This document shows positions 2,626 through 45,971 of a stretch of DNA of 64,000 bases, piece by piece (the stretch's first letter is position 1; every line of letters begins with the position of its first letter). The notes under the pieces are model-generated. The model saw only the letters and a list, made by a program, of their open reading frames with translations. It ran no database searches and was not told the origin of the DNA. The stretch lies in the NCBI GenBank assembly GCA_034687125.1, contig JAQGBZ010000122.1:100112-164111 (forward strand). Direction: 5' to 3'. This DNA is from Neelides folsomi (taxonomy: Eukaryota > Arthropoda > Collembola > Neelipleona > Neelidae). The position numbers and the translations under genes were made by a program.

Positions 2626-2847
2626 GTAACAATAGGTTGCCCACAGTGTCGCACACCTCTCAACGCCGCGTTTATAGTTAAAAGTTGGAGGTTTTGTTAA
2701 TTACTTAACACTTAATAATTAAGGTAGCTAGGTAGTTAGGTAGCTCGCCTACCTCAGAAACAAATCTATTTTAAAAGGATTAACTTTAAACTCAAACTCG
2801 CAACTCTCACAGAGTTTTAGTTTTTACAATGCAATGCTGAAGTTTAT
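2626..2847 (+). repeat. left terminal inverted repeat of the pogo-like element
   Basis: It matches the reverse complement of 3638-3844 with few mismatches and small indels. Shared blocks include ctctgtgagagttgcgagtt (as complement) and taaaagttggaggttttgtt. Confidence 0.85.
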
Positions 2848-2936
2848 TACACATTCAATATTCAATAAAAATATGATCAGATTTAACGAAAATGAATTCT
2901 TTATTAAATTTTACCAACTATTGAGGATAATTTAAA

Positions 2937-3495
2937 TCAACAATGCTTCCTGGCCCTCTTCCTCTCCCTCTTACAAATCTTTTCGGCATTCACGTTCTTT
3001 TTATTAAATGCCTTTACACGATTTAAGCTTATTGCATATGGTTTATGTATTGCAAGCTCTAGATGACGTTTCATAAATCCTTGAAGCTACTAAAATTAAA
3101 TTAGAATTATTTAGTAAAGGGAAGAAAATTTTCTATAAAGTGAATTATTAAGATTTATAATATAAAATTACTTTATTTCCTGCTAATCCATTATTATAAA
3201 ACGGATGCTTAATTCCATTTATTTCGGCTAATTCAAATGTCAATGAGAATAAATCTCTTGTTATCCCATAGAATTTTTCGCATATAACTTTCTAGTGATC
3301 TACTAAACATTTCTCTTGTTCGATATTGAATATTGGACGACCTTTATATGCTTCAATTGGGACTTCATTTTTTAATCTTCTTTGTAAAGATCTTGCTGAA
3401 ATATTAAATGTTTGGGCCTGTCTTCGTGACATACCATTTTGGACAATGTCAATCGCATTATTATAAAATTGTATTCTTTTATAACGTTCTCCCAT
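2937..3495 (-). pseudogene. Tigger-type transposase remnant: HTH_psq plus CENP-B HTH region, DDE domain missing
   Basis: Exon 1 runs from ATG at 3495 down to about 3172 and exon 2 from about 3086 to a TGA at 2937-2939, joined by a GT-AG intron. The first part looks like a psq/pogo helix-turn-helix (AIDIVQNGMSRRQAQTFNIS, then SLQRRLK). The second is a CENP-B-type helix-turn-helix: FELAEINGIKHPFYNN, GLAGNK, LQGFMKRHLELAIHKP, then SLNRVKAFNKKNV. This matches the standard Tigger order. An in-frame TAG at 3292-3294 separates the two parts and the usual Trp after the AG(K/N)(K/D) motif is absent at the splice, so I call it a pseudogene. It ends in a basic tail (KRERKRARKH) exactly where a DDE domain should start. 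Confidence 0.85.
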
Positions 3496-3637
3496 ACTAT
3501 TAAACTTTAAAATGGTCTTAATAAAACTTAATTTCGCTATAATTGTTTAATTTGAATATTGTAAATATTCAATAAAGAAACATTATCACTTTAGTTCTGA
3601 TGAAAAAAGACGTGAGTGAGTAATGTAATAAACCTTT

Positions 3638-3844
3638 AGCATTGCATTGGATAAACTAAAACTCTGTGAGAGTTGCGAGTTTGAGTTTAAAGTTAATCCT
3701 TTTAAAATAGATTTTTCTGAGGTAGGCGAGCTAGCTAACTACCTACCTTAATTAGTAAGTGTTATGTAATTAACAAAACCTCCAACTTTTAAGTATAAGC
3801 GCGGCTTTGAGAGGTGTGCGACACTGTGGGCAATTTATTGTTAC
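3638..3844 (-). repeat. right terminal inverted repeat of the pogo-like element
   Basis: It is the inverted partner of 2626-2847. The transposase-derived gene on the minus strand starts about 140 bases inside it, as expected for the 5' end of the element. Confidence 0.85.
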
Positions 3845-4230: not shown

Positions 4231-5105
4231 TTACTCAATAAAAATTGTACTTAACAATATCGTAATTGTATTCATATATAAATATTTCAAATTACATTCT
4301 TCTTGACTTCTCCTTACACATCGGGCCACTTTTCTCTTGAATTCGGTGTAATTTTCTCTCCACTCTTTCTGCAAACGAAATGAAGATATGAATATAAAAA
4401 ATTAATTAAATGTAGAAATTATCGATTAAAAAACTTATAATTGAAGAATAACTCACAGCAGCGTCTACATTAGCGGGACTTTCGTCGTTGGGATCTGCTA
4501 ACATGGATATGACTGAGATAAGTATTGTTTCGACAGTATGGACAGGAAGCCAGCGTTCAGACGCTTTCTCATATCCCCATTTGTCATCTCCTGGCTCATG
4601 AAGGATGGAAATGCAAACATCTCCGCTCTTATCAACTGGAAAAATCATCCACAGCATTAAATCCTCATCCATCTTTATAAAATGCCCATCGGTGATGTAA
4701 ATCCAAAATAATTATTATGCTTACTATTAGGATGCCAAATTTCCGTAATGAATTTCATTTTGGGGGGACGAAGAGGGTACTCTCTTGGGAAATTCAAATG
4801 AGCTTTGAAAAAACCTCCCTCGCTGGAAAAAAACCAAATTTAAATTAAAATCTCGTTGAGATAAATTTCATAAATTTGAATTATATTAAGCTTGAATCAT
4901 ACTAAAGGGTATCTGGAGGTCCAATAATCAACACTTCCCATCGGTAAATATCATTATCATCGATAAGGCCAGCAGAGAAACCTTCGACTGGGTTCTTGTT
5001 CAATTCTGAAAAATGGGAAAAAAGTTTAATTTTGTGTTTAGCCAATGGCGGTCCGTTACCAGTCAGTTGCTTTCGGAGGAGGAGAGACGACTGAGGTTCC
5101 GACAT
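4231..5105 (-). CDS. UBE2G1: ubiquitin-conjugating enzyme E2 G1
   Basis: This E2 enzyme carries ubiquitin as a thioester and passes it to substrates with an E3 ligase. Exons on the minus strand: 5105-5060, 5005-4903, 4822-4725, 4635-4457 and 4368-4231 or a little shorter. The start is the ATG in [14 protein letters not shown]. Family landmarks are [19 protein letters not shown], the HPN motif (split by an intron), the catalytic Cys in [12 protein letters not shown], the acidic-loop insertion of this subfamily ([16 protein letters not shown]) and [17 protein letters not shown]. The fold is complete up to RCVRRSQEE. The end is ambiguous: reading through adds about 20 residues to a TAA at 4231, while splicing at t/gtaatt (near 4310) to an acceptor near 4190 creates a TAA directly after the last EE codons. 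Family length (about 170 aa) favours the short form. Confidence 0.95.
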
Positions 5106-7001: not shown

Positions 7002-12972
<5,971 letters not shown>

Positions 12973-22314: not shown

Positions 22315-24424
22315 ATGTCGGACATTGGTGAAGATAGATCGAAGAGTTTGGCTCTTGTTGAAGACGACAGAACAAAAGTTGCAATATTCAAAAGAAATCT
22401 CAAAGACGATGGTGAATTTAAAAAACCGAATCCTTCCAAGAGAAAGAAAGTTGTTTTAGATGAAGACAAATACGCATCGGTGAGCTTATTAACTTTAAAT
22501 AAGAATTAATTTTGTTGCAAATAATAAAATTTTTAAACGAAAGCTAAAATAATATAATAATATTTAGATTTATTAGTTTTTATATTTTATTATAGGATTT
22601 GGACAAGATCATCCAACGAGAATTTTTCCCAGATTTGGAAAAACTTAAAGCTCAAAATGCTTATTTGCAAGCTGTTGAAAATAATGATTTCCACATGCTC
22701 AGAGAACTCTATTCAAAATTTGGATTTGGTAAAAATACTCCACGAGGAGGTAAAAACTAAATTATTAATATTAAATATTTAACTTACATATCTTCCAATT
22801 ATACGATTTTATAACTATATTTTTATTATTTAATGTTAAAGTTGTGGAGACTCCATTAACATTCGAAACTCCGACTGACCCTGGCGAGCGTATGAGCAGT
22901 AGTCGAAATTTGGGTCTTGAAACTCCTGACTTCACTCCAACGCATCTTCCAATGGAATCTCCAAGAAAATTTGATCCGACTGAGATAAAAGAAAAGAATC
23001 CCAAAGAAAGAGAAATATCTCTCAATGAGTATCTTGATAAGTATACCAGCGAAGACAACCAGAGCTTTCAAGACATTTCAGACGAAGCTGAACGGAAGCA
23101 CCGAAACAAGGTTTAAACATTAAATTATATCTTAAATATATATTTTTTATTATAACAATTTACATTCAATAATTCATTAATAATTTATTAATTTTTTAGT
23201 TTTCGTGGCTTTATGAATCAGAAAAATCTCATAACGAGAGACAAAGAAAGTCATTGGGACTTCCCTCAATTGAAGAGCAAGCAGCTGAGTACAAAAGACC
23301 TTTGGATATCGATACCTGGAATTATAAAAACAAAAATTATATCATGTTTGTACCTGATGGTAAGTCAAAGTTCAAATCTTCCAAATATGAAATCATTATC
23401 AATTAAAATTTTTAAATTATTCATAAAAATTATATTTATTACAGGCGTTCCATTTACTGCTGAAGAAGAAGTGGAAATGGCCAAAAAGAAACAAGAAGTT
23501 GTTCTTGAAAATACGCGATTTGCCACAAATCCTTTTAAAGACCCAATTGCTCCCGAAAAACCAATTCCAAACACAAAGGTTCTTGAAAATAAATATAATG
23601 GCAAAAAAGATTCGGAAGGGAAGTTTGGATTTGATGGAAAAGAAGTTGAAAAGACTGAGACTCCAAAAGTAAATGGTTTTAGTTTCGTAAGAACTCCTGA
23701 CATCAATCCGGGTATTTTTTAAATATCAAATAACTTAAAATAATAAATTTTCACAATACTACATAGAGTAGTGGTATTACTAATGACAAATATTTTTTAA
23801 TTTCTTTAGGAGTTGAAGATTCGCCATTTATGACATGGGGAGAAATCGAAGGAACTCCATTTCGCTTAGACGCTGGGGACACACCAATTCCTTCCAATCC
23901 GATTAAACCATTTAGAATTCTCGAAGAGTCCAAAAGAGAAAAGTTGGCCATTGAGCTTGCAGATAAAGTGAGCCAACGATACAGAGATAAGAAACAAAAA
24001 GCAATGGACCAAGCAAGGACTAGTCTTGGAACGTAAGTCAACTCATTTAATAAATAATCTCCATATTACTTAAAATTATACCTTTAGCATTTAATTTTAA
24101 ATTTTTTAATACAGACCAAGTCCAAGACCTGGAACAATGGACAGATTGAGCTCAATTTCTCCAGCAGCTCGGAATTTTGCTCTTAAGCGACTTCAATCAG
24201 GAGATTTATCTTTGAGATCTTCATACACTCCAAAGAGATCGGCAACTCCTTTGGCTTCTCCTTTTGTTGCAACTCCCAAATCTACGTTTCGTGCTTACAG
24301 CACTCCTTCAACAACTCCAACTGCAACTGCAACATCAAGTTCTAATTTGACTGACAACCTTCTTCGATTACCTAAAAGGAAAGAAAGCAATTTGGTTAAG
24401 GGTCCAAAAATGCCCCCATTTTAA
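22315..24424 (+). CDS. ESS2: splicing factor ESS-2 / DGCR14 homologue
   Basis: ESS2 is a nuclear protein of the Es2 family found with the late spliceosome. Seven exons: 22315-22479, 22596-22749, 22842-23110, 23200-23359, 23445-23711, 23810-24032, 24115-24424, totalling 515 residues; all introns are only 80-120 bases. Landmarks in order: the N-terminal LDEDKYASDLDKIIQREFFP and PDLEKLKAQNAYLQAVENND, TPLTFETPTD, a central ISLNEYLDKYTSEDNQSF, WLYESEKSHNERQ, TWNYKNKNYIMFVPDG, FTAEEEVEMAKKKQEVVLEN, NGFSFVRTPDINPG, FMTWGEIEGTPFRLD, and the C-terminal SPAARNFALKRLQSG with many SP/TP sites. These match the known ESS2 order end to end. The length is close to the human protein (about 480). ATG 22315 is chosen because it opens the conserved N-terminus and stands just after AT-rich leader sequence. 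Confidence 0.96.
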
Positions 24425-25500: not shown

Positions 25501-26171
25501 TTAAACTCCTCCAATAAGTCCAAAAACATTGTCGAAGATTGAGACGAGGAATTCATTGACCCCGGTCAGCATGTTGGGAAGGAATCGTGTAATTGGCCCA
25601 AAGAGGTTTTCTTGAATTCCGCTTTCTTGTGATTGTCTCACGAGTGTCACAACATTGTCGATGGAGCTGTTGACATCGCTTGGAACTCTGACTTGTTGAT
25701 TTCTCATCAACCTCAAGACCTCAACGAATTGAGTTGGAAGATCGAGGAGGAGAAGTCGCGGCATATAGCCGACAACGGTAGCCAAGTCAAAGGTGTTTGT
25801 GATTACGGCTCTGGTCAAAGTGTCTGAAAAATTCATTTCGGAAACCAATTAACAAAATTAATTAATTAAATATTTTAATATTTTTATTAACTATTAATTA
25901 AAATTATTTTTCTGGTTGAGAGTTGTCTACTAAAACAATCTATGAACTCACGGATAGCTTTGGTTGCATTTTGTCCATGGACGGCGGCTGTTGTGGCGAG
26001 TCCTTGCAACGTGGTGATGAGATTAAGTTGGAGTTGACCGGCGGCTCCGTCCACAGCTTGGCGCAATTGCTTCCTTCGGACAGCGTCTTCAACGAAGTCA
26101 TCTCGTAAAGCTGAGAAGACGACGTGGAGAGAGCAAACGAGGAGGATGAGAGAAAGAGTTCGAGATGACAT
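25501..26171 (-). CDS. secreted protein 1 of the array (180 aa, unknown function)
   Basis: Two exons on the minus strand, 26171-25952 and 25823-25501, give 180 residues. A clear signal peptide opens the protein (MSSRTLSLILLVCSLHVVFS, with cleavage expected soon after). The mature part is helical, without Cys, starting with a charged/Gln-rich stretch (KQLRQAVDGAAGQLQLNLIT). The core is VITNTFDLATVVGYMPRLLL then PTQFVEVLRLM, and the C-terminal module is ITRFLPNMLTGVNEFLVSIF. It is a close paralogue of the gene at 35088-35672 (same exon number, intron early in the mature part or after the signal; TNTF-L-VVGYMPRL-PTQF-E-LRL conserved). It is the only array member on the minus strand. A TATA box lies just upstream. 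No known family recognised. Confidence 0.85.
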
Positions 26172-26213
26172 TGTTGGGTTCTAAGAGAATCTCCTCTCAA
26201 TTTCAAGTCATCC

Positions 26214-26222
26214 TTTTTTATA
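26214..26222 (-). promoter_or_regulatory. TATA box of secreted protein 1
   Basis: TATAAAAAA on the minus strand, about 45 bases before the ATG at 26171, a fitting place for a short leader. Confidence 0.6.
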
Positions 26223-27193
26223 TGATCCTCATTCTTAGGTTTTTACTTAAAACAATGATCAATTATCTCACAATGGAACTTACAAAGTTTTCATCCTCAA
26301 TTATACTTAATTATTAATGAGATTCACCACGCGCATACGATCAATTGGATATTAATTTATTCCAATGTTAATCAATACGGTTGGAATATTAAACAAAATC
26401 TTAATGTAAATTTTCTTTCTAACAATTGCTAAAAACAATTGAAAACATGGCGTAGTTAAAAACATTGCTTAAAGTTTTATATATTCTAACTTTTTAATAT
26501 ATGACATTACATAACTAGATTACATATACAGTTAAAATATTCTAGGTAGTATTTCCATCTCGTTAAGATAATAATTTTGTACTAAATTGATGTTAAACTA
26601 TGTATATGCTGCTACTAGTAAAAATGTCGATTCTAAACAAAATTACTTTAGGTAATATTATTCATAAATATCACTTATGTTATGAGTTATGAATGCTATT
26701 AAAATAATGATATTAATTCAATTCAATAATTGAAGATTCATGTTAAAAACAAAGTGGAAAAATGAATTAAATTGTAATATATTCATAAAATTCATACATT
26801 ATTACGAGTACAATGAGCTCTAAAAATTGAGATGAAAGTCACAGATGTGTTTCTTTCCGCTGAAAGAAAAAGCTCACTTTTTTTCTGTATTTAATATATT
26901 CATGAATGTAATAATTACATGAAGTTAGATAATGTACAAAGAGATCTTAACAGGAATTTTAGGATGGATGAAAGAGGAAAAGGACACGGAGAAACTCCAG
27001 AGATTTTTTTTCTCTCATCCAACCCGATCGTTCCTTTTTCCATAAATATTCAGAAGATAAATGAAACAGATAATCAGATAATGAATGTGTTGTTGAGTTT
27101 ATAAGCATGAACATTACCAAGTCTTTTTTTCTCACAAATTGAATCCTCACGAAAGTAATTAATTAAATAATAGTCACCTAAATAAGAAGAAAA
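26223..27193. other. divergent intergenic region between secreted proteins 1 and 2
   Basis: AT-rich and no gene seen. It should hold the promoters of both neighbours. Confidence 0.55.
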
Positions 27194-27945
27194 ATGAATA
27201 ACACTTTAATATTTCCAATAATATTCTCTCTGTGTTTAATGGTAATTTTAATTTTATTGCCAATTCATTTTATATGTTATTATATTACTTAATCTCATAA
27301 GTAATGTTATAACTTTTATAGCTTGTGAAGTAATTACTATGTCTGATTACAATTTTTAGGTATATGGATATCCTTACAACGCCATTAATTATGATTTGAA
27401 ACGGGCCGACGAGAGAATAAATGTAAGTTAATTTACTTAATTAAAATATTTTAATTCATACCATGTGGAAAATTATATTTTATTCAATTCTGAGTTCTTT
27501 TTGTATGTTTTTATAGATTAATTTTCTCAAAGTTTTAATGTCATTTCTGATTCTCGACGGTCCTCTTCCAACCGAAATTGATTATTCCATTCAAATCCTT
27601 ATCCATGGACTAATTGGAACTAAAAAATATCATCATGCAACAGGTCAAATTCTTTCTGTTGCATACGATCCATTGGAAAATCAAATTTCTACAATGCTCC
27701 GATTCATTGAAAAATGGGCCGAAGATGACTATGAAGAACGCAAGATGAAAATTGCTGCAAAGACGCTTAGAACTTACATTGACACTCCAGAAGCTAGAGA
27801 AAGCATGAGGAATATTGGGAATTATGTGAGGAATCTTTTTCAGACGGTTGTGGCCATTGACAATCCATTGTATTCTCCAAAACCAGTTGGATCTTTACCT
27901 TCTGGAGATATTTTAAACAGTATTTTCCCAAAGCTAGGAAAATAA
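27194..27945 (+). CDS. secreted protein 2 of the array (179 aa, unknown function)
   Basis: Three exons, 27194-27241, 27360-27422 and 27517-27945, give 179 residues. Exon 1 encodes little more than the hydrophobic signal (MNNTLIFPIIFSLCLM). The mature protein starts VYGYPYNAINYDLKRADERI, recalling the GYPYPLDSK start of the gene at 32760. A middle module contains IHGLIGTKKYHHATGQILSV and then ENQISTMLRFIEKW, whose NQ-x-x-x-hydrophobic motif matches the other members. The C-terminus (NIGNYVRNLFQTVVAIDNP) is less similar. No Cys is present in the mature part. It is the most diverged member, and placing it in the family rests on architecture, position and the NQ motif. Confidence 0.8.
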
Positions 27946-28436
27946 ATTTAAAACAACTTTAAAATTTCAATTCAATTCAATTCAAACAACTTTAATGATA
28001 AATAATTTAAATAAATACTAATCATGTATAATTTTCAATAACTTCAATTCCGTGTATTATTATATGTATAATTGTATAATTTAACTGAAGTAAGTAAACT
28101 GTAACTGTAACACATGGATAACCAAAACATCAAAAATAAAAAAATTCAATAAAATTTGAATTCCATTTAATTCATATTAAGATGTTCATTATTGACAAGA
28201 TTGTATGCATTAAAGCCGATTTAGTTATTATTATTATATATAATAAATATATCTCAAATACTACTAATTTATTCATACCATATTTCAAAACCAACGGAAT
28301 TAGAACGGTTGGGCAACCAACAAACTAAACCATGCGAAGGGAATTTCATTAAAAATTCATTTTCTTTTCTTTGCATATTATTCGCGAATAGTGAATTGGT
28401 AATTGGGATTTTGTGTTAATTAAATTTCGATTAGCA

Positions 28437-30022
28437 ATGAACTCTCAATCTTTGAGTCAGCCAGAGCAACTCACATTAATTCAAAAGATTGAACGCCTTG
28501 CTTTGGAAATCATCACCAGTTTGGCTGAAGGAAGATATTTTTCAATAACGCTACTTAAATTTGGAAGACCTCACCCACAAAGTTATGAAAATCCGTCTAA
28601 TCGCGAAAGATTGGCTCGATTGCTTTATTTAATGTCAAAGTCTCATTGGATGTTAACTAAAAATCAAGTTGCTACTAAAAGAGACATTTACTACGAAGAT
28701 GTTGGATTTTTCAAAAGTCAAAATGTTCTTGATCGCTCTATAAACGATTTGATCTCTCTTCTAAAAGTAGGGAATTGTTAAAGCTTTGATAACCTCGTTA
28801 TTTAATTAATTTACTTAAAGTTATTGTTAATTGAATTAAAGTCAATATTTTATTAAGTAGGCCTCAAGGAAGGAATTGATGATTGAAGTCTCGGCCAAAG
28901 GATTGATTGCAGGAAATATGAGATGGGTTGAAGCTGGTCAGATCGTCAATTTGTCCGAATTTGGAACTGGGAAATTAATCCCATCAAATACTGACGGTAA
29001 TGATAAGTAGAGAACTATACTTTGGATAATGAACCTAACTTCATTTTAACTTATAATATTAACTTATAATATAAAGTTGGGAAATATTAAATAATATCAT
29101 TTCATCAATTGAATTCTTTCCAACTTTTCCCATTATTTTAAATTAGGAATGGTGAGTTTTGAAACTCCGGCTCGATTTATTCTTGTTGTTGAGAAAGACG
29201 CAATATTTCAAAAGCTCTTGAGCGAAGATGTTTTTTCAAGTCTTGGAGAATTTATTCTCGTTACAGGTAAACATTTCAGTGAATGATGAAATAAAATATG
29301 TTTTCTATTTAACCATCATGCAACAAGTTTGTCTTTGATTTATTTATGTTGATTTTATTTAATAGGAAAAGGCTATCCTGATTTAGCAACAAGAAGTCTT
29401 ATCAAAAAGCTTTCGTCCCTCTTTGACATTCCTGCCTTTGTGTTGGTTGATTGTGATCCATATGGAATCGACATTGCTTCTTGCATTAAATGGGGATCAG
29501 AAGTCCAAAGGAAAATTTCTAAGAGAACTGAACAGAGTCAAAATGAGGATTTTATTGTTCCTGGGCTCATTTGGATTGGATTGAAACCTTCGGAGTTGAA
29601 CAGTTTGGCTCTTCCTCCTGAAGCTTTACTTCAACTAAACGAGAAAGACGAGAGAAAATTAACAGCTCTGGAAAAAAGGATTCCTCTCAAAACTGCATGT
29701 TTCATATCGCTATTGAAAATAGATATTATACAAATACAGAATCCTAGTTCTATTAGTATATCTAATGTATATATATATTTATTGTATGTATGTATTCATA
29801 TGTATATGAACGTATGCATGCATATATGGCATTTCTCTCATTTCATATAATTATATATTTTGGTTATTTTATTTGAAGGAAGGCAACACCTGGCTTCCCG
29901 AACTTGAAGAAATGAAAAGGTCAAAAGTCAAAGCAGAATTAGAAAGTATATCTTCACTAACGCCCACATTCCTCTCTGCCGTTTATTTGAAATTGAAGAT
30001 TAAGCCTTATCTTTCAGCTTGA
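28437..30022 (+). CDS. SPO11: meiotic recombination nuclease SPO11 (topoisomerase VI A-like)
   Basis: SPO11 makes the double-strand breaks that start meiotic recombination. Five exons: 28437-28766, 28861-28996, 29147-29266, 29366-29698, 29883-30022; 352 residues, a little under human SPO11. The catalytic Tyr lies in ATKRDIYYEDVGFFKSQNVL. ETPARFILVVEKDAIFQKLL carries the Toprim Glu; GKGYPDLATRSLIKKLSSLF and FVLVDCDPYGIDIASCIKWG give the metal-binding DxDP motif. SAKGLIAGNMRWVEAG is also typical. All catalytic residues are present, so it should be active. The last intron uses a weak gtttca donor; I chose it because the join restores PLKTACNTWLPELEEMKRSK in line with the family, ending in VKAELE and a short tail. 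The ATG at 28437 precedes the family N-terminus (SLSQPEQLTLIQKIERL). It sits inside the secreted-protein array, with no functional link evident. A polyadenylation signal follows near 30264. Confidence 0.95.
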
Positions 30023-30393
30023 TTAGCTTATAGCCCTTCTAGCTCATTAAACCTCCGTTTCTTTATTTGATCTATTGTGGAAAAATTAAGTTCTTTGGAC
30101 GTTGTTTCATTAAATTAAGATTAACAAAGTAATATAATTTACATGTTTAATTATCAAGCTAAATATGTAGTTATTATGTTATTAATATGTTTTGTATTAG
30201 TTATTGTAATTATGTATAAAATTATAATTATTCCATTGTTAATATATTGTTATAAGCGAAGTCAATAAACTCTCTTTAGAAGGTGAACGAGTCGTATTAG
30301 AATTCTGTATGAGATATTCTTATTTGATGGAAATTAGAACATATTTTTTAATTAATTATTCTTACCAACGAGAAATAATAGATAAATTGAGAA

Positions 30394-30400
30394 TATAAAT
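30394..30400 (+). promoter_or_regulatory. possible TATA box of secreted protein 3
   Basis: TATAAAT about 87 bases before the ATG at 30487. In AT-rich DNA this could be chance. Confidence 0.35.
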
Positions 30401-30486
30401 TGAAAGAGTTCCGCATTCCGTTTTTCATTGCCCTTTTATGAAGAATCTTTTTGCTTGAAATCTGATTACTTTTTTTTTTACTCAAA

Positions 30487-31940
30487 ATGAGATCTGTTTT
30501 ATTGTTTTGGTGTATATTAACAGTCATTTTTAAATGTGGACATTCACAATTCTTTGATCCAAACATGGACGATAATTCCTATTTGGAAAAGATTCAAGAT
30601 GATGTTTTACAAGAAGTTGAAGACTCCAAATTAGAATTAATGGACCAAGCAAAGATTGTTCAAGATATTACAAAAGTTTACATTGGAGCAAAACTGAAAG
30701 AAAATCTTTTCACCGTAAGAAAGTCTTTATATTCATTCCTTATAACATCCATAGCCGTTTGTTAATTGTTAATTATGTTTACATAAAATTACATCCTTAG
30801 ATGAATTTAATTTACTCATAACAAATATGCCAATATTATTTAATTAATCTAAGTAATTTCTGTATTTAGGCTCTTCGGGTCCTTGCAGAAAAAGAACTTG
30901 ATTCCATTTCCATGCAAGATCGCCCTCGACAGCCAAGACAAGAAGAAGAAGATGACGATGCTCCAGCCGCTTCAACAAGAAGAAATAACATCATTCCACA
31001 AGTAAAGAAATATTCAAGGATAATAGCAGAACAGAAGTTGTATTCATAAACAATACATCTTATACTTATAATATATTTATAATTCATTCTATATCTATTA
31101 AGGAATAATTATATTGATTTAATATTGTTCACATAGGTTGCTAGTTTGATCAAAGCCATTTTTGGTGGAAACATCAATTTAACTGCCTATGTTGAAGGAG
31201 CGAGTGTTTTGCTTCCCAAGCCAATTCATAATCAATTAGTCGGAGTAGTGAAATTGCTTGCAAATAACCCAAGTCCTTCAACAACAACCATCAAACCACC
31301 AACAACAATCCCAGTTGTCACAGCAGCATCCGTAAAGGCAGTTGAAGCTCTCGTGTCAACTATTCCAGTTCCAACACCTTCACCCCAACCAGTAAAATTG
31401 GAAACTGAAAAAGTGTCAACTCGGCGAACAACAACTGAAGATGATGAAGATGAGGACGAAGACGAGGACGAAACGGCCAGACGAGGACGACAAGATCCAT
31501 TAGGCCAAATTCTTAATTCTATTGGATCTCTCATTGGAGGAAGTAGTAACAGAAGACAAGCTGGTAAAATGATTTCTAATTAACGCATCATCATTACATG
31601 ATGCAACTAATGAGAATTTAATATATTTTACATTTATTTGTATTTTTTACTTAAATTCCTATTTATTTTTTAAGCTGCTGCACAAGCTGCTGCACAGGCG
31701 GCAATTTTAGCTGCTCAGACGACCGAAAGCGCAAGTGGGTTTGAAGAGGAAGCGAACAAGACAGCCACAGCGACAAATGCTAATGGAATTAACAACCTCA
31801 ATTTGGACACACTCAGCCAAGGTGTTAGGAATGGACTTGGAGATCTTCTTAAAATCATGCCAGACATTTTTAAAGGAGCAAGAGAGGCTTACAAACTTCT
31901 TGGAACTGTCACGGGTCTTTTTCAACGACTCGAAAACTAA
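30487..31940 (+). CDS. secreted protein 3 of the array (350 aa, unknown function)
   Basis: Four exons, 30487-30714, 30870-31001, 31137-31563 and 31675-31940, give 350 residues. The signal peptide is MRSVLLFWCILTVIFKCGHS. An acidic helical part follows (LEKIQDDVLQEVEDSKLELM), then a basic/acidic linker (DRPRQPRQEEEDDDAP). The first module is VASLIKAIFGGNINLTAYVE then PIHNQLVGVVKLL. A Thr/Pro/Val-rich linker with an Asp/Glu run and RRG/RR cleavage-like sites follows, then an Ala/Gln stretch (AAAQAAAQAAILAAQ). The C-terminal module is LGDLLKIMPDIFKGAREAYK. The closest relative is the gene at 37560-39185, which shares PQVA-L-AIF-G-NLT, Q-GV-KLL and FKGAREA. No Cys in the mature part. The Thr-rich linker could be O-glycosylated (inference). 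An AATAAA lies near 32019. Confidence 0.85.
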
Positions 31941-32701
31941 TTAATTCATTATTTTAATTATTACTACAAAAGTAATGTAAATCTAGTAAATTATAACTGT
32001 GATGGTTAAAAATGAAAAAAATAAAAAAATTATTATTTTGTAATCTTTTTTTAAACTTCATTTCACTCTGCTGTAAAGAAAATTAAATTCATTGTTAAAA
32101 TATTGATTTGGTGAAAATTGGATCATTAAGAGTCGTTTATATAAAACTACTTTTATATACAAAGTAGAGTAGACAATCGCATTTATCAACTGCATACCTA
32201 TATAACTTATACTTTATACAAATAACAGATATAATTTATTAAATAAATCTTCGAGGTCTGTTGAATTTCATAAAACCCATATATAATGTAAGTTTGTTCA
32301 TTAATGGAGTTATGTAGAATTGAAGAGAAATCATTTAACTTATTTTACTTTGAATGGCAAGTGGGAATTTGGGAATATTGAAAAGGCCTCACTGCCTTCA
32401 AAGTTTTCAAATAATAAAATAAACCCTGGTTTGTCTGCAGAGGAATGTATTAAAGTTACATAAAAGGGCATTCCCAATTTGGTTTGTTTAAAGGCAACTG
32501 AATGATAATTTGAAGTGAAGAGAAGTCGTTAGTCTTGAATTGTTATCGAACAATGTTCAATTGAGTAATGAATAATAATGATGAAGCTGGAATCGGAGTT
32601 AATTAGAATAATTTTCAGGATGAATTAACAGATCATTACACTTTCGGTCTCGTGGATCAATCCTGGTTTTTCCTTATAAGTACAGGAGTGAAAGTAGTTG
32701 A

Positions 32702-32709
32702 TATAAAAG
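32702..32709 (+). promoter_or_regulatory. TATA box of secreted protein 4
   Basis: TATAAAAG about 55 bases before the ATG at 32760; good consensus and spacing for a short leader. Confidence 0.65.
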
Positions 32710-32759
32710 GATTACGAGAAACCTCAGGTTCAGACTTCTCATCTTGAGCTGAGTCCAAA

Positions 32760-33782
32760 ATGAAGACTTTTTTCGCCATTGCCATCCTGGTCCAGGTGAG
32801 AATGAACCAAATGTATGTTCAATCATACCATGTTAAAAAGGGATTTCAAATGTATATTTATTGATGTAAAGGGAATATGCGGCTATCCTTATCCATTGGA
32901 TTCAAAATTCCACTCGGAGACTTCTTCGTCCCAACTCCAAATCAATGACATTGATAAGAGCATTAAAGACATCACAAAGACGATCATGTTCGTGGCCGAG
33001 TACGTGTATGACACCAATGAGGCTGTCCAATCAATCAAGAACGAGGTCAATCTGCTCCAATCAACCCTTTCAAAGAAACTGGTCAAAAGGTCACCGTCCA
33101 GTTCAATTGTCCAGAGAGAAGAACTCGCTTCAAAGGTTGAGAAAATGCTCGCTGTGGAAAATGTTCCTCAAGTGGAAGTTGCCAAAAAGGAACTGGAAGA
33201 CAAAATTCAAACAAATTTTATCAAAATGCTGTCGGCCATTATTGTAACAGGACCCGTTCATGTTCAACATAGAACACAAGACATTTTAAGAGTAAAATTC
33301 AAATATATATTTTAAATATATATACTATATATTAATTGAGTATTATAATTAATTAATTAATGGAATTAAATTAATTTATTAATTTATATTGATTCATCTT
33401 AGCTCATGAGAACAGTATTGAATGGAGAAATGGACTTTAAGCCCGTTATTCAAAAGCTCCCGTTCCTTCTCAGAGACAACGAAACAAATCAATTTGTCAT
33501 TCTTATGAAAACCATGCGAGAGGTAACGTTGAACCTATTTAGAAATTAAATCAATTCCTATAGTTCAACTTAAATTGGTTTCTAACAGTAAATGAATGTT
33601 TTAAAATTTAGAGCGAAAGAAATTCATTTTCGAGACAATTTGGTGGATTGAACAATCTCGACAAAATTGTGGACATTTTGGGAACCGTTGACTTGAAGGA
33701 AGTTTCTGGATTTCTTAAGGAACTCCCCGAACTATTTGAAGGAGTCGAAAGTGTCGTTGATGGTGTTGAAGAATACTTTTAA
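32760..33782 (+). CDS. secreted protein 4 of the array (248 aa, unknown function)
   Basis: Four exons, 32760-32795, 32872-33291, 33403-33522 and 33612-33782, all joined in phase 0, give 248 residues. Exon 1 encodes only the start of the signal peptide (MKTFFAIAILVQ) and the mature start is GICGYPYPLDSKFH. A long helical part follows (DIDKSIKDITKTIMFVAEYV), with a KKLVKRS dibasic site that could be cleaved. The first module is LMRTVLNGEMDFKPVIQKL then TNQFVILMKTM. The last exon encodes SERNSFSRQFGGLNNLDKIV and the C-terminal VSGFLKELPELFEGVESVVD. The P-x-L-F-x-G motif and the NQF motif tie it to the other members. Starting at 32760 gives a signal peptide and a good TATA distance. Confidence 0.85.
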
Positions 33783-35004
33783 TTAATTAAATATTTAAAA
33801 TAAAAAAATTTTGAATGTTGGAAATAAATACTTAAAAAACCCTTAATTTTCTCATGACATTATATTTTTTTAAATGTACAAAATTAAATCACATTACTTA
33901 TTAATATTATCATATACATATAAGTTTATAATAAGTGATTCAGAATTTCCAAAATATTTAAATCATCTAATTGTACATCTCGGAACAGTTAATTAATACG
34001 ATTATAACAAAATCACAAATGCAAAAACTTTCAATTACCTTGCACCGTTGCACCAGCAAACTAATTACATATAACATTACCATTTGTATATCGAACTTTA
34101 GTAAATAAAATCTGTAAATAAGTATTCATGTACTTACTAAAAGTTGTTTATATAATAAGTTATACAGTTACATATTATTATTATCTACATTAGAATCATT
34201 ATAAAAAATAATAGGTAATAAAATGTATTACATATGCGTACTAAAATATTGTGAATTGAATCACATGGCAGGAAGAAAGTGTGGCAATTTGGAATTTCTT
34301 TCTTAAAAAATGATTTTAATTTAAACCAAGTGGTTTGATCGAGTCAAATGTTCCTGCACCAACAAACCAATCCTTTTACATCTAAGAGATTCATATGAAT
34401 ATTTTATGCAATAAATTTTACCTACCGGCTACCATCAAAAGTTGTGTCTTATTGCTCCAATCCACGCATTTATCGCCCATATAAATAAATACGGGTAAAT
34501 ATGTAGATATATAATCTAACTATTTATATAATGTACATACCTAGTAAATATATTAAATATATATATATATATATTGAGGGGTGTTATCAGACTATTACAG
34601 CTACTGTGGATTTGAGTTTAAAAATGTTAAAAATGTTCATGAATTGTGATTAAATTTCAAATGATTTAGCAAAATGATTAAAGTAATATGGTTACACAAT
34701 CCACTTGGTTTACATTCATCTCCATAATTAGCTTGCATTCGAAATCCGTCATTTTGCCACGAGATCTGTAAAGTACTGAAGGCATTGAACGAACCTGTAC
34801 AAAATTAATTACCCCAAACGTTCCCTAATCAGCGATTTTTATTCGCATTGTTCTTCCGGCCAAACATGTGAGGATCGCAGGTGTTTGAAGACTTGAAGTA
34901 ATTGACCTGGGAACAATTGTCTCCATATTTCTATTGTGTGATGAAGTGAGATCTCCCAGAATGTTCTTTTGCCTAATTACAATTCTGACTCGATTGGAAA
35001 GACG
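33783..35004. other. AT-rich intergenic region
   Basis: An AATAAA at about 33823 probably ends the transcript of secreted protein 4. A short (AT)n run lies near 34557-34575. No gene seen. Confidence 0.6.
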
Positions 35005-35010
35005 TATAAA
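35005..35010 (+). promoter_or_regulatory. TATA box of secreted protein 5
   Basis: TATAAA, followed by AA, about 80 bases before the ATG at 35088, inside a locally G+C-richer promoter. Confidence 0.6.
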
Positions 35011-35087
35011 AACCGTAGGAGAAACCCTTGTGAGGACACAAACTCATTTGAGCAAGTTGAGAGGACTCACATCGACCAAAAGGAAAA

Positions 35088-35672
35088 ATGGAATCGAAAT
35101 ACTTGATCTTATTGGGACTTCTCCTGGGTTGTGCCGCCGAAGTAAGCGATTCCTTGTAAGCCATTAATGCTCAACAGATCTCATTTCAGGCCTATGGGCG
35201 ACCCAACAACAGAATCGACGATGAGACGAAGGTCCGCGATGCGAGACAAGCCCTTGAGAACGCTGCAGCTGCACTTCAAACCAATTTGATCGTGGCAATG
35301 AGGAACCTTGCCAACGCCTCTTCTGTGGCTGGAACCAACGTCAGTCGAGCGGCCTTGACCATGATGAGAGGTCTCGTCACCAACACGTTCTCACTTGCTG
35401 GAGTCGTCGGCTACATGCCACGTCTCATCTTCCTCGATGGGCCAACTCAATTCATCGAAACACTCCGACTCGTCCGAAGCAACCAAATCCGAGTTCCCAA
35501 TGATGTAGACTCTGCCATTGACACGCTCATCGCTTTTGCCAACCAGATGAGAGACTCGGGAATTGGCGACAACTTCACTCCGGCATTCACTTTCCTCCCG
35601 AACTTATTCACCGGAGTCGGAGATTTCCTCACCACATTCATTGACTCAGTTTTTACTTTTATTGGAAATTAA
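35088..35672 (+). CDS. secreted protein 5 of the array (178 aa, unknown function)
   Basis: Two exons, 35088-35141 and 35190-35672, joined in phase 0, give 178 residues. The signal peptide is MESKYLILLGLLLGCAAE. The mature part starts AYGRPNNRIDDETKVRDARQ and continues LENAAAALQTNLIVAMRNLA. The core is LVTNTFSLAGVVGYMPRLIF then PTQFIETLRLV, and the C-terminal module is FTFLPNLFTGVGDFLTTFID. It aligns with secreted protein 1 over almost its whole length, so the two are recent paralogues now 9 kb apart and in opposite orientation. Codon choice (CTC, ATC, GCC, AAC) is richer in C than in members 2, 3 and 6. An AATAAA lies at 35717. No known family recognised. Confidence 0.87.
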
Positions 35673-37503
35673 TCCACAGGAGTGTATAGAAACAAAACGA
35701 AATGACCAAAAAGTTCAATAAATACACTCAAGAATATTTTAACAACTTATTCATTTCCACAAACCCACTTTAAAAGTATTTTTACACATATTGTATTTTT
35801 ATAGTAACATGGCATAAATCCTGGAAACGTCCTAACTAGAGAATCCACCCGGTTATAATAATGTTTGTTAAATGTACAATTACCTTATATTCCATTTTTA
35901 TAAACTTAAATACAGATACTCTACTAGCTTATACTTTATTAATATTATTAATTTCCAACATATTTAAAATAAACCTTCTATTACTACTCCGAAAATAACT
36001 CTATATATTCACATACGAGAATAGGTAACATGAGTAAATATGGTAGTATAGGTATGTAGTAGATATATCTGATTGTAAGAAAAAGAAAAGGTTCTCATTT
36101 TCTTCTCTGATTCGCGTTCTTGAACCGTGCAGAAATCAGTGTGACACATGAGATGACTTCAGAGCACCTGACATTCAGAATATCCGTCTACTCACAATTT
36201 ACATTATAAGCCTTATACTGCCAACTGCCATCCTATTACCCCAAGACCCCAACCAATCCTCGATCTTTATAATCCCTGACAATTCCACCCAATAAACCCG
36301 AAAAAAACCCTCATACTTAAATACAAGCACTTTTATCCAATTCTAAACAAACAATAAGAGTAAATACAAATAATATACTAGGTATGTTATCCTACATATT
36401 ATACAAAAAATATCTAATATACATACATGTACGTATAAGTATGGATGATTATTGATATTATATGTTCATATAAGTAGTAATGTAGTAAACTAAATAGTAA
36501 GTATCCATGTATTACATAATATATGTTAAATATAGAGTAAATATATGAAAACTTCAAAAATACTACTAGTGCTCAATATAAAATATAAGGTACATTACAT
36601 GTATGTAAGTGTAGATACGGACCTTCATAGAGTAGACGATGCCATTACTATATAATGTAGTTATATAAGTATATGACCAAAATCGTGAAACAAATTGTTA
36701 ATGTATGTTCTTGATGGATGTTGGGACCATTTGTAAAATATGTGTTAGGACCTATTAATTAAAGATCAAATAAAATAAAACTTCTTGTTTTCCCTTTGTT
36801 CTCCTACAACAATTTTCCTTCATCTAACGTGCCACCAAATTCAACATTTCCCCTCTTTTAATTCCTCAAACAACATCTGTGACGTCAACGTCTTTTAAAT
36901 GCAGTTGTGCAAAGTTTAAATAATGTTTGAATATTTTTAAACAAGAAAAATAGACGAAAATTGATTTGGAAAGACAAAGATGGCGTGCAATATCTTTGTC
37001 CATTTTTTAAAATATATTTAAAGCCATGAATTTTGGAATCAATCATAAAATAGAAATTATTAAGAGTTATTGTTTTTATTATTATTTAAGTCATTTTGTC
37101 ATTTACTATTCTTATGATATGTCCAAACCTATAATAAACCATTTTAGTTGAATCGTGTTAAAATGGTTAATCCGATTTTATACATTGGTTATTGGTTCAT
37201 TAACATTGTTCATAAATTAATTATAAGGAACGGTATTTGTTAATAAATATCTGGACATATTACAAAACATTATTCTCCATTTTCTATTTTAATAGTGTTT
37301 TCTTAATGATCCAGTAATTAATTTTTTATTACCAATAAATGCAGATAAACAATAAATTCCTCAAAATCGTTCGTTGAACTTTCCACCTCAATCCTAACTA
37401 ATATTTTGGCATAATACTACAGATAATTAATAATGAATTTGTAATTGTGTCATTAATTGTTTTAGATGAGCTTCCTGGCTTATATTTTATTCTCATTCCA
37501 AAG
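35673..37503. other. AT-rich intergenic region
   Basis: No gene seen. A short hairpin (accatttta ... taaaatggt) lies at about 37138-37168 and might belong to a small degenerate inverted-repeat element between about 37115 and 37260. Confidence 0.5.
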
Positions 37504-37513
37504 TATATAAAAG
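37504..37513 (+). promoter_or_regulatory. TATA box of secreted protein 6
   Basis: TATATAAAAG about 50 bases before the ATG at 37560. Confidence 0.65.
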
Positions 37514-37559
37514 CCAGGATGAAGAGAAAAAACCATTTTTATATATTAGGAACGTTGCG

Positions 37560-39185
37560 ATGATTTGTATTAGATCTTCAATTTATTTTTCCCTCTTCTT
37601 CCTCATTTTTCAATATAATCATGTAAGTAATTTCATTTTCCTATTTTACAACTCATTTCATGCGAAATTGAAATGAAAAAAAGAAAAATTGGTTTCTATA
37701 GGTGTCAGCAAATTCTAAAATTTCCAAAGATGCGAATGAAAGAAGTAAGAGAGAATTTCACAAAAGAATTCTCACAGAAGCAGAAGAAGAACTTGCAAAT
37801 GAAGCTCGTTCACAAATTGTCCATGTCATGGAAAAAAATTTAATTCGAGTAAGTCTGAAGTCAAATATGAGTTAAATACAATTCAAGTTTTTACCTAATT
37901 TAAACTTACTTTAAGTTGTTTGCCATCATAAGTCATCAAAAAGACTCAAAGGGAAGGCAAGACATTGAGGATATTGATGAAGACATCGTCGACGTGACTC
38001 CAAATCCAAATGTTCTTCCTCAAGTAGCTCAACTCTTAGGAGCCATTTTCTCTGGGAGCTTGAATCTCACAAGTGTACTTGACAGAACTTTTACCTTTGT
38101 TCCAAATGGTAAGTTTACAATCTTCACTATTCTCAACTTTGTCAAATTATGATAAATCATACAAGATTCTATATTCTATACAGGTATACTATACAGATTC
38201 TATGCAGGACTATAATATAATATCTGTATATATATGATGATTTATATAACCCCAATCTACTTATTAAAATACTACATAATAAGAATTTAATGTATTATAT
38301 AAATATATGTACTATATTTATTCACTCTCACAATTAGGTATGTTGGTAATATTTTCCTAACGAGTGAGTAATTGTGTATGGTTTACAAGTAAATTTGACC
38401 AATTTGATTTCTAGTTTGTTTTTTTGACCTTTTAAAAACAACCATTTAATGAATCATTCTTGATCTGTCGTACACTAAAAGACTTTGTAGATAAGTATGA
38501 CATTCAATGACATTAAATGAAATGGATTGTTTTGATTTAAACTTTAAAACAATTCTTTATTATTCCGAACGTCAAAACAATACTAATCTACATATCTTAC
38601 TTGTAACAAACAATGTTTCCAAAAAGGAAATAAAGTTTTAAATTTCGTATAAACATTATTATTTTATTTACATTAGCAATCCGAACACAATTCGAAGGCG
38701 TGTTCAAACTCCTTACTGGAAATCGAGGCGCAACGACTACAATTGCCCCTGTTATTGTCGAAAGTACAAAGGTTACTGAAAAGGTCAAAGAGGAACCAAC
38801 AGTTCCTTCAACATTAATAGTTGAGGAAACGACTCCAGTTTTAGACGAAGTTGTTAATAACACTGGTAAACAGAAAAGTCGATATCGAGTTAAAAGCAAA
38901 TCCACAACTCTTTCGCCCACTCTTGAAATCGATGACGACGAATTGCTGCGAATGGAAAAAGAAGTGATTGAAGAAGCAAGAGCTTATGAACCTTTTGTGA
39001 GAAACAAAGAACCAAGATTCTTCATAGAAGCTTTACAACAACTATTCACAAGGGTTGATTTTAACATGACAGAAATTGTTAAAACTGTTCCGAGTCTTTT
39101 CAAAGGAGCAAGAGAAGCCGTGGCACTTTTAGAGAATCTCGGACAGATTGATTTAGAAAACATTTTTGAAGAAGCAGACGATTGA
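37560..39185 (+). CDS. secreted protein 6 of the array (303 aa, unknown function)
   Basis: Four exons, 37560-37622, 37702-37848, 37916-38108 and 38677-39185, give 303 residues. Exon 1 is the signal peptide (MICIRSSIYFSLFFLIFQ). A charged helical part follows (HKRILTEAEEELANEARSQI), then an acidic linker, then the first module VLPQVAQLLGAIFSGSLNLT and IRTQFEGVFKLLTGN. A Thr/Val/Glu-rich linker (TTTIAPVIVESTKVTEKVKE) matches the TTTIKP linker of member 3. The C-terminal module is FTRVDFNMTEIVKTVPSLFK then GAREAVALLENLG. It is the closest paralogue of the gene at 30487-31940. The last introns of the two are not in equivalent places: member 3 has one before VASLIK, and this gene has one right after the FVPN motif. 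No Cys in the mature part. Confidence 0.86.
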
Positions 39186-39962: not shown

Positions 39963-40584
39963 GGTTAGGGTAAAGATTCTGGGTACTGGAACGGGCACAT
40001 AAAACCCAAAAAGAGGCACATAGAACCCAAAAAGGGGCACATTGAACCCTTAAACGGGAACATAAAAAGTGGGCACATGTGCCCGAAAAGGGGCACGTGT
40101 GCCCTTTGGACCCAAACCGGGCACAATGTTCCTGAAAACGGGTTAAAAGTGAGCACATAGGACCCTGAAACGGGCACATCCTGAAAGGGGCACATTGGAC
40201 CCAAAATGGGTCTAAGGACGAGAGGGGCACATTGAACCCTATACTTAATTTCTAATCGTAAGATGTAGTAAACATAAATGTGATGTCCCCTTAAGGATCT
40301 AATCTAACAATAAGTTCAATTATGGAAAAAAATTAGTATAAAATGCGTATAAAATTTTTTCTGCATAAACTATATTCAACATTTATTTGTGATATAAGTT
40401 AATGTTATTATAATGCAGATTTGTGCCCATTTTAGTAGGTATATGCCCACTTTGTGTTTATGTGCCCGTTTGTGGACATGTGCCCTAAGGGTTCAATGGG
40501 TTTATGTGCCACATTTAGGGTTCAATGTGCCTCTTTTTGGGTTTTATGTACCCGTTCCAGTACCCAGATTCTTTACCCTGACCC
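39963..40584. mobile_element. hAT-like non-autonomous element (MITE) built of GGGCACAT-type repeats
   Basis: The element is flanked by a perfect 8-bp direct repeat, atttcact, at 39955-39962 and 40585-40592, the target-duplication length of the hAT superfamily. Its ends are inverted copies: agggtaaaga, then t/a, then tctgggtactggaacggg on both sides, followed by cacataaaaccc or tacataaaaccc. The left half is an array of short degenerate repeats of the type gggcacat plus gaaccc/aaaccc, and the right half has the inverted versions (atgtgccc, gggttcaatg). No transposase is present. The hAT assignment rests on duplication length; the end bases themselves are not diagnostic. Confidence 0.85.

Positions 40585-41158: not shown

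Positions 41159-45971
<4,813 letters not shown>

What the first reader, a model, noticed from the sequence alone, without database searches (positions are those of the whole stretch)
25501..39185. Array of six diverged secreted-protein genes with a shared two-module plan
Six genes (25501-26171 -, 27194-27945 +, 30487-31940 +, 32760-33782 +, 35088-35672 +, 37560-39185 +) all encode a signal peptide and a Cys-poor helical protein of 178-350 residues. Pairs 1/5 and 3/6 are plain paralogues. Across the pairs the same marks recur: a hydrophobic module ending in (T/N)Q(F/L/I) plus aliphatic residues (PTQFIETLRL, TQFEGVFKLL, HNQLVGVVKLL, NQFVILMKTM, ENQISTMLRF), and, in all but member 2, a C-terminal hydrophobic-P-x-x-(F/L)-x-G motif (LPNLFTGV, LPNMLTGV, MPDIFKGA, VPSLFKGA, LPELFEGV). 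I know no described family with this layout. A tandem, fast-diverging secreted family could act in host interaction, cuticle, reproduction or extracellular transport.
Basis: partly seen in the sequence, partly recalled or inferred. Interest (0 to 1): 0.85.

Follow-up and report, generated by a model that had tools for sequence, protein, structure and literature searches.

The report
Cluster of diverged secreted-protein genes
An animal genome carries a small cluster of old, strongly diverged duplicate genes for cysteine-free, helical secreted proteins that match no named protein family; the cluster is real, but what the proteins do is unknown and such clusters are common in animals.

Summary
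The observation largely holds. All six genes are at the stated coordinates, with intact reading frames, GT-AG introns, N-terminal signal-type sequences and no cysteine after residue 20. Genes 1/5 and 3/6 are paralogues. Gene 2 is not shown to belong: it fails the core tests and has only weak similarity to genes 4 and 1. A SPO11 gene lies inside the array; no further member was found among the window's ORFs. No Pfam model reaches its cut-off and there is no credible PDB sequence or fold match. The one usable structure model (gene 5) is all-helical, of middling confidence. Most likely this is a tandemly duplicated, fast-diverging family of extracellular helical proteins; four of six genes have a TATAAAA box upstream. 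Function is inferred, not shown. Species and wider distribution could not be tested: no eukaryotic collection was available.

The parts
25501..26171 (-). gene 1 (180 aa), exons 26171-25952 and 25823-25501; signal sequence, core, C-terminal LPNMLTGV
27194..27945 (+). gene 2 (179 aa), 3 exons; signal-type N-terminus, Cys-free; family membership uncertain
30487..31940 (+). gene 3 (350 aa), 4 exons; core, Thr/Pro-rich and acidic middle, C-terminal MPDIFKGA
32760..33782 (+). gene 4 (248 aa), 4 exons; extra N-terminal region ending in a KLVKR site, core, C-terminal LPELFEGV; bridges pairs 1/5 and 3/6
35088..35672 (+). gene 5 (178 aa), 2 exons; paralogue of gene 1; structure modelled
37560..39185 (+). 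gene 6 (303 aa), 4 exons; paralogue of gene 3, sharing an intron position with it
28439..30021 (+). SPO11-type gene lying inside the array (not a member; limits approximate)
   Evidence: TOP6A-Spo11_Toprim E=1e-21 on 29353-29847; outer limits read by eye

Best explanation
Genes 1, 3, 4, 5 and 6 are an old, fast-diverging family of secreted, cysteine-free, mainly alpha-helical proteins that grew by local duplication; gene 2 is a possible sixth member. Shown: intact genes, signal-type N-termini, a shared core and C-terminal motif in five, synonymous above non-synonymous change in pair 1/5, a TATAAAA box upstream of four of six. Inferred: the proteins pass through the secretory pathway, are N-glycosylated, and fold as helix bundles held by hydrophobic packing rather than disulphides; genes 3 and 6 carry long acidic or Thr-rich, probably disordered linkers between core and C-terminal helix; gene 4 may be cut after KLVKR to give a domain of about the size of genes 1 and 5. 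They probably work as tissue-specific extracellular proteins of a gland, gut, cuticle or body fluid, perhaps binding small hydrophobic ligands.
For: Gene models and introns. Held-out 49-column block: gene 4 from 1/5/3/6 0 of 5000 shuffles, genes 1 and 5 from 3/6/4 0 each, genes 3 and 6 from 1/5/4 1 each; 13 of 13 such comparisons among the five put the block at the expected place. Profile HMMs against 1552 control ORFs: gene 1 from 4/3/6 E=1.4e-4, gene 4 from 1/5/3/6 E=0.003 and from 1/5 E=0.16, each above all controls. Two-block test for genes 1, 3, 4, 5, 6: 0-1 of 3000 shuffles. C-terminal motif in 5 of 6 genes, 0 of 1552 controls. Same intron position and phase in genes 3 and 6. pS 0.74, pN 0.41 for 1/5 over 178 codons. 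TATAAAA 31-100 nt upstream in 4 of 6, background 0.04. N-glycosylation sequons beyond residue 20 in five genes. All-helical model of gene 5. No Pfam family above cut-off, no PDB relative by sequence.
Against: HMMER does not find genes 3 and 6 from a profile of 1/5/4 (ranks 153 and 113, E 81 and 58) or of 1/5 (ranks 476 and 460), nor gene 5 from 4/3/6 (rank 66), and a 3/6 profile puts genes 1, 5 and 4 at ranks 12, 13 and 78, behind controls. So the link of 3/6 rests on block and motif tests whose limits were set after seeing all the sequences. Gene 5 from 3/6 alone: 19 of 5000 shuffles. The first helix of gene 6 alone is at chance (1282 of 3000). Smith-Waterman 5-3 and 5-6 are not significant (387 and 90 of 1000), 4-3 and 1-3 only weakly (36 and 12). 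hhalign of the two pairs gives probability 3.8%, E=0.011. Gene 4-5 BLASTP falls from 5e-4 (six proteins) to 0.059 (all ORFs, filtered). pS and pN of the 3/6 C-terminus are nearly equal (0.50, 0.47 over 34 codons). No expression, protein or ligand data.
Confidence: 0.6

Rival explanations
1. Two unrelated secreted families (1/5/4 and 3/6), plus singleton gene 2, happen to lie together; similar hydrophobic helices give apparent similarity.
For: HMM searches in both directions between 1/5/4 and 3/6 rank behind controls; hhalign probability 3.8%; Smith-Waterman 5-3 and 5-6 not significant.
Against: Gap-free block at the expected place in held-out tests; C-terminal motif in all five and in 0 of 1552 controls; same order of segments; introns close together in the core of genes 1, 3 and 4 (offsets +6, +5, +8; phases 1, 0, 0), which is suggestive only.
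Confidence: 0.2
2. A remote member of a named family (for example insect allergen repeat/G12-type helical lipid binders, or an exchangeable-apolipoprotein-like bundle) diverged beyond profile detection.
For: Helical model, Cys-free, signal-type N-terminus, clustered. The resemblance itself is recalled.
Against: Pfam, recalled to hold both families, gives no such match at E up to 5 for any of six proteins; no Foldseek match with E at or below 0.001 in PDB or the viral library.
Confidence: 0.15
3. Secreted effectors acting on a host or prey, diversifying under conflict.
For: Signal-type N-termini, clustered, strongly diverged.
Against: Cys-free, unlike disulphide-rich venom peptides; pS above pN in pair 1/5. 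Species and lifestyle unknown.
Confidence: 0.15

Closest known systems
Osiris family (DUF1676), secreted gene cluster of insects (PMC3284338, passages seen)
   Same: Clustered genes encoding proteins with a secretion signal peptide, function long unknown.
   Different: No two-Cys region, no AQXLAY motif, no DUF1676 match, no strongly hydrophobic 19-residue segment after the signal.
Insect allergen-related repeat / G12 microvillar proteins (Bla g 1 type; features recalled)
   Same: Secreted, helical (recalled).
   Different: No Pfam match at E up to 5; no significant fold match.
Apolipophorin III type exchangeable apolipoproteins (features recalled)
   Same: About 160-residue Cys-poor secreted helix bundle (recalled).
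   Different: No Pfam match or PDB sequence match; only 4 of 18 core helix segments are more amphipathic than 95% of their shuffles.

Membership tests
Osiris (DUF1676) | N-terminal signal peptide | tested here: met
   hydrophobic N-termini by Kyte-Doolittle in six of six; no dedicated signal predictor
Osiris (DUF1676) | two-Cys region | tested here: not met
   no Cys after residue 17 in any of six
Osiris (DUF1676) | DUF1676 domain | tested here: not met
   no match at E up to 5 in six proteins
Osiris (DUF1676) | AQXLAY motif | tested here: not met
   absent in six of six
Osiris (DUF1676) | putative transmembrane domain | tested here: not met
   peak 19-residue Kyte-Doolittle 0.97-1.53 after residue 20; the usual threshold of about 1.6 is recalled, and no topology predictor was run
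Insect allergen-related repeat | match to the family profile | tested here: not met
   no match at E up to 5 in six proteins
Insect allergen-related repeat | helical fold enclosing a large lipid cavity (recalled) | tested here: inconclusive
   gene 5 model all-helical, middling confidence, no significant PDB match; cavity not examined
Apolipophorin III | match to the family profile | tested here: not met
   no match at E up to 5 in six proteins
Apolipophorin III | reversible lipoprotein binding (recalled) | not testable with these tools
   needs biochemistry

The most novel reading that the evidence does not exclude
All six genes, gene 2 included, belong to one undescribed, lineage-restricted family with its own helical fold: a disulphide-free secreted domain with a C-terminal hP-x-h-F-x-G helix, some members made as proproteins or with long acidic linkers, serving a lineage-specific extracellular function.
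Probability: 0.25. Interest if true: 0.5.

Novelty: new member of a known kind. Interest (0 to 1): 0.36.

Why it matters
If the family and fold are truly new, it would add an unnamed extracellular domain and a clear case of how clustered secreted genes diverge almost beyond recognition while keeping a small core. The defined core and C-terminal motif give a concrete search profile for other animals. The kind of thing, a clustered, fast-diverging secreted family of unknown function, is common.

Tried and rejected
Rejected: a detectable Osiris, insect allergen repeat or apolipophorin III identity. Weak Pfam hits taken as chance: DUF4156 E=0.0051 for gene 5 (17.6 bits, cut-off 28.9), the others E 0.028 or worse. 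PDB sequence hits at E 0.12-2.9 (phage capsid, kinesin and others) taken as chance; a 1/5 profile gave none up to E 10. Best Foldseek E 0.65 in PDB and 0.17 in the viral library. Relatives of gene 5 in viral contigs and prokaryote genomes: none; only this one protein was searched there. A full-text search for six peptide strings found 0 papers; five broader searches (3 of 3, 20 of 183, 20 of 1290, 6 of 39 and 8 of 37 papers listed) showed no matching family in the listed titles and abstract starts; of papers I saw only passages of PMC3284338 beyond listings. High expression from codon use: GC3 is raised in genes 1, 4, 5 (0.45-0.56) but as much in three PAK-like exons (0.45-0.54), so it is not evidence. 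Amphipathic helices: 4 of 18 segments at 5%. tRNA and Rfam scans of the window were empty. Alignments A2 and A4 looked misaligned and were not used.

Full report
Observation. Lengths are 180, 179, 350, 248, 178 and 303 residues. All have a hydrophobic N-terminus and no cysteine after residue 20; their few cysteines lie at positions 3-17. No dedicated signal-peptide predictor was available. Genes 2, 4, 5 and 6 have a phase-0 intron in or just after the signal region, at residues 16, 12, 18 and 21.

Relationships. In a database of the six proteins, genes 1 and 5 match at BLASTP E about 1e-52, genes 3 and 6 at 4e-13 plus a C-terminal segment, gene 4 and gene 5 at 5e-4; against all window ORFs with the low-complexity filter, 3/6 gives 6e-7 and 4/5 only 0.059. 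A gap-free 49-residue block (helix, turn, helix ending in (T/N)Q(F/L)) aligns genes 1, 5, 4, 3 and 6. In 13 held-out comparisons among these five the best position was the expected one each time, with 0-6 of 5000 shuffles as good in 12 and 19 of 5000 in one (gene 5 from 3/6). Profile HMMs against 1552 ORFs from outside the array place gene 1 (from 4/3/6, E=1.4e-4) and gene 4 (from 1/5/3/6, E=0.003; from 1/5, E=0.16) above all controls, but not gene 5 from 4/3/6 (rank 66), nor genes 3 and 6 from 1/5/4 (ranks 153, 113) or from 1/5 (476, 460), nor genes 1, 5 and 4 from 3/6 (ranks 12, 13, 78). hhalign of pair 1/5 with pair 3/6 aligns just this region plus the preceding helix (E 0.011, probability 3.8%). 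That preceding helix has a shared Asn followed by Leu or Phe in all six (by eye, positions); helix and core scored together give 0-1 of 3000 shuffles for genes 1, 3, 4, 5 and 6, though the helix alone is at chance in gene 6 (1282 of 3000). Smith-Waterman: 4-1 0, 4-5 1, 1-3 12, 4-3 36, 5-6 90, 5-3 387 of 1000 shuffles; 4-6 and 1-6 were not run. The C-terminal motif is in 5 of 6 genes, 19-32 residues from the end, and in 0 of 1552 controls; its pattern was written from these sequences. Genes 3 and 6 share an intron at the same place and phase; genes 1, 3 and 4 have introns at core offsets +6, +5 and +8 (phases 1, 0, 0), near but not identical. I conclude that 1/5/4 and 3/6 are each solid and that their union is probable.

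Gene 2. The best core-block placement is not the expected one and scores within shuffles (551, 3335 and 2443 of 5000 for three training sets); HMMs rank it 159th or lower in all six trials. Weak support: Smith-Waterman with gene 4 (6 of 1000 shuffles) and gene 1 (14), first helix 146 of 3000 and two-block 31 of 3000; with genes 5, 3 and 6 there is none (348, 234 and 972 of 1000). It lacks the C-terminal motif. Membership is open.

Further members. A five-member core profile against 1988 window ORFs of 20 aa or more found only exons of genes 1, 3, 4, 5 and 6 above the inclusion threshold; the next, E=0.65, lies in reading frame of the gene 2 region's first intron and is taken as chance.

Selection and promoters. 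For 1/5, pS 0.74 and pN 0.41, near saturation and consistent with purifying selection; for the 3/6 core 0.64 and 0.39, C-terminus 0.50 and 0.47. TATAAAA lies 31-100 nt upstream of the ATG in genes 1, 4, 5 and 6 and not in 2 and 3; 4.0% of 20,000 random 70-nt stretches of 14-58 kb hold it (binomial tail 3.5e-5, a post hoc test). This fits regulated, tissue-specific transcription (inference).

Structure. AlphaFold2 of gene 5 exon 2, with an alignment of five exon fragments, gives an all-helical model (pLDDT 69.7, pTM 0.65). Foldseek found no match with E at or below 0.001 in PDB or the viral library. The gene 2 exon 3 model, single sequence, is unusable (pLDDT 49.7). Genes 1, 3, 4 and 6 were not modelled.

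Known families. No Pfam model reaches its cut-off for any of six proteins and PDB sequence searches with gene 5, a 1/5 profile and gene 4 give nothing below E 0.12. Gene 5 has no relative in the viral contigs or prokaryote genomes by the tool's test. Osiris features other than the signal peptide are absent (features). No eukaryotic proteome could be searched and no genome of this organism is held, so lineage restriction is untested.

Mechanism. The most likely reading is an extracellular, disulphide-free helical protein family made under tissue-specific promoters. N-glycosylation sequons occur beyond residue 20 in five genes. Gene 4 has an extra N-terminal region ending in KLVKR, after which the remainder is about the size of genes 1 and 5; gene 6 has an RSKR site near its N-terminus. 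Processing there is inference. Whether the bundle binds a hydrophobic ligand or forms a matrix is not settled by anything here.

Noticed in passing
28439-30021 +: A SPO11 gene lies inside the secreted-gene array, between genes 2 and 3 (limits by eye).
   Followed up: partly
39963-40583: 93-nt inverted arms (87% complementary) around 435 nt, built of repeated GGGCACAT-type units; may be a small non-autonomous mobile element.
   Followed up: no
2626-3844: Inverted repeat (119-nt arms, 90%, and 84-nt arms, 95%) enclosing a minus-strand ORF with a Psq-type helix-turn-helix (3295-3546, E=2.9e-5), probably a transposon remnant.
   Followed up: partly
9268-9525 and 4409-4711: T-box exon on the plus strand (PF00907, E=1.6e-17) and a ubiquitin-conjugating enzyme exon on the minus strand (UQ_con, E=6.5e-14).
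   Followed up: no
23767-24033 and 45531-45968: Es2 exon (E=3.9e-11) and protein kinase exon (E=1.1e-23) on either side of the array; the kinase looks PAK-like from its other exons (recalled).
   Followed up: no
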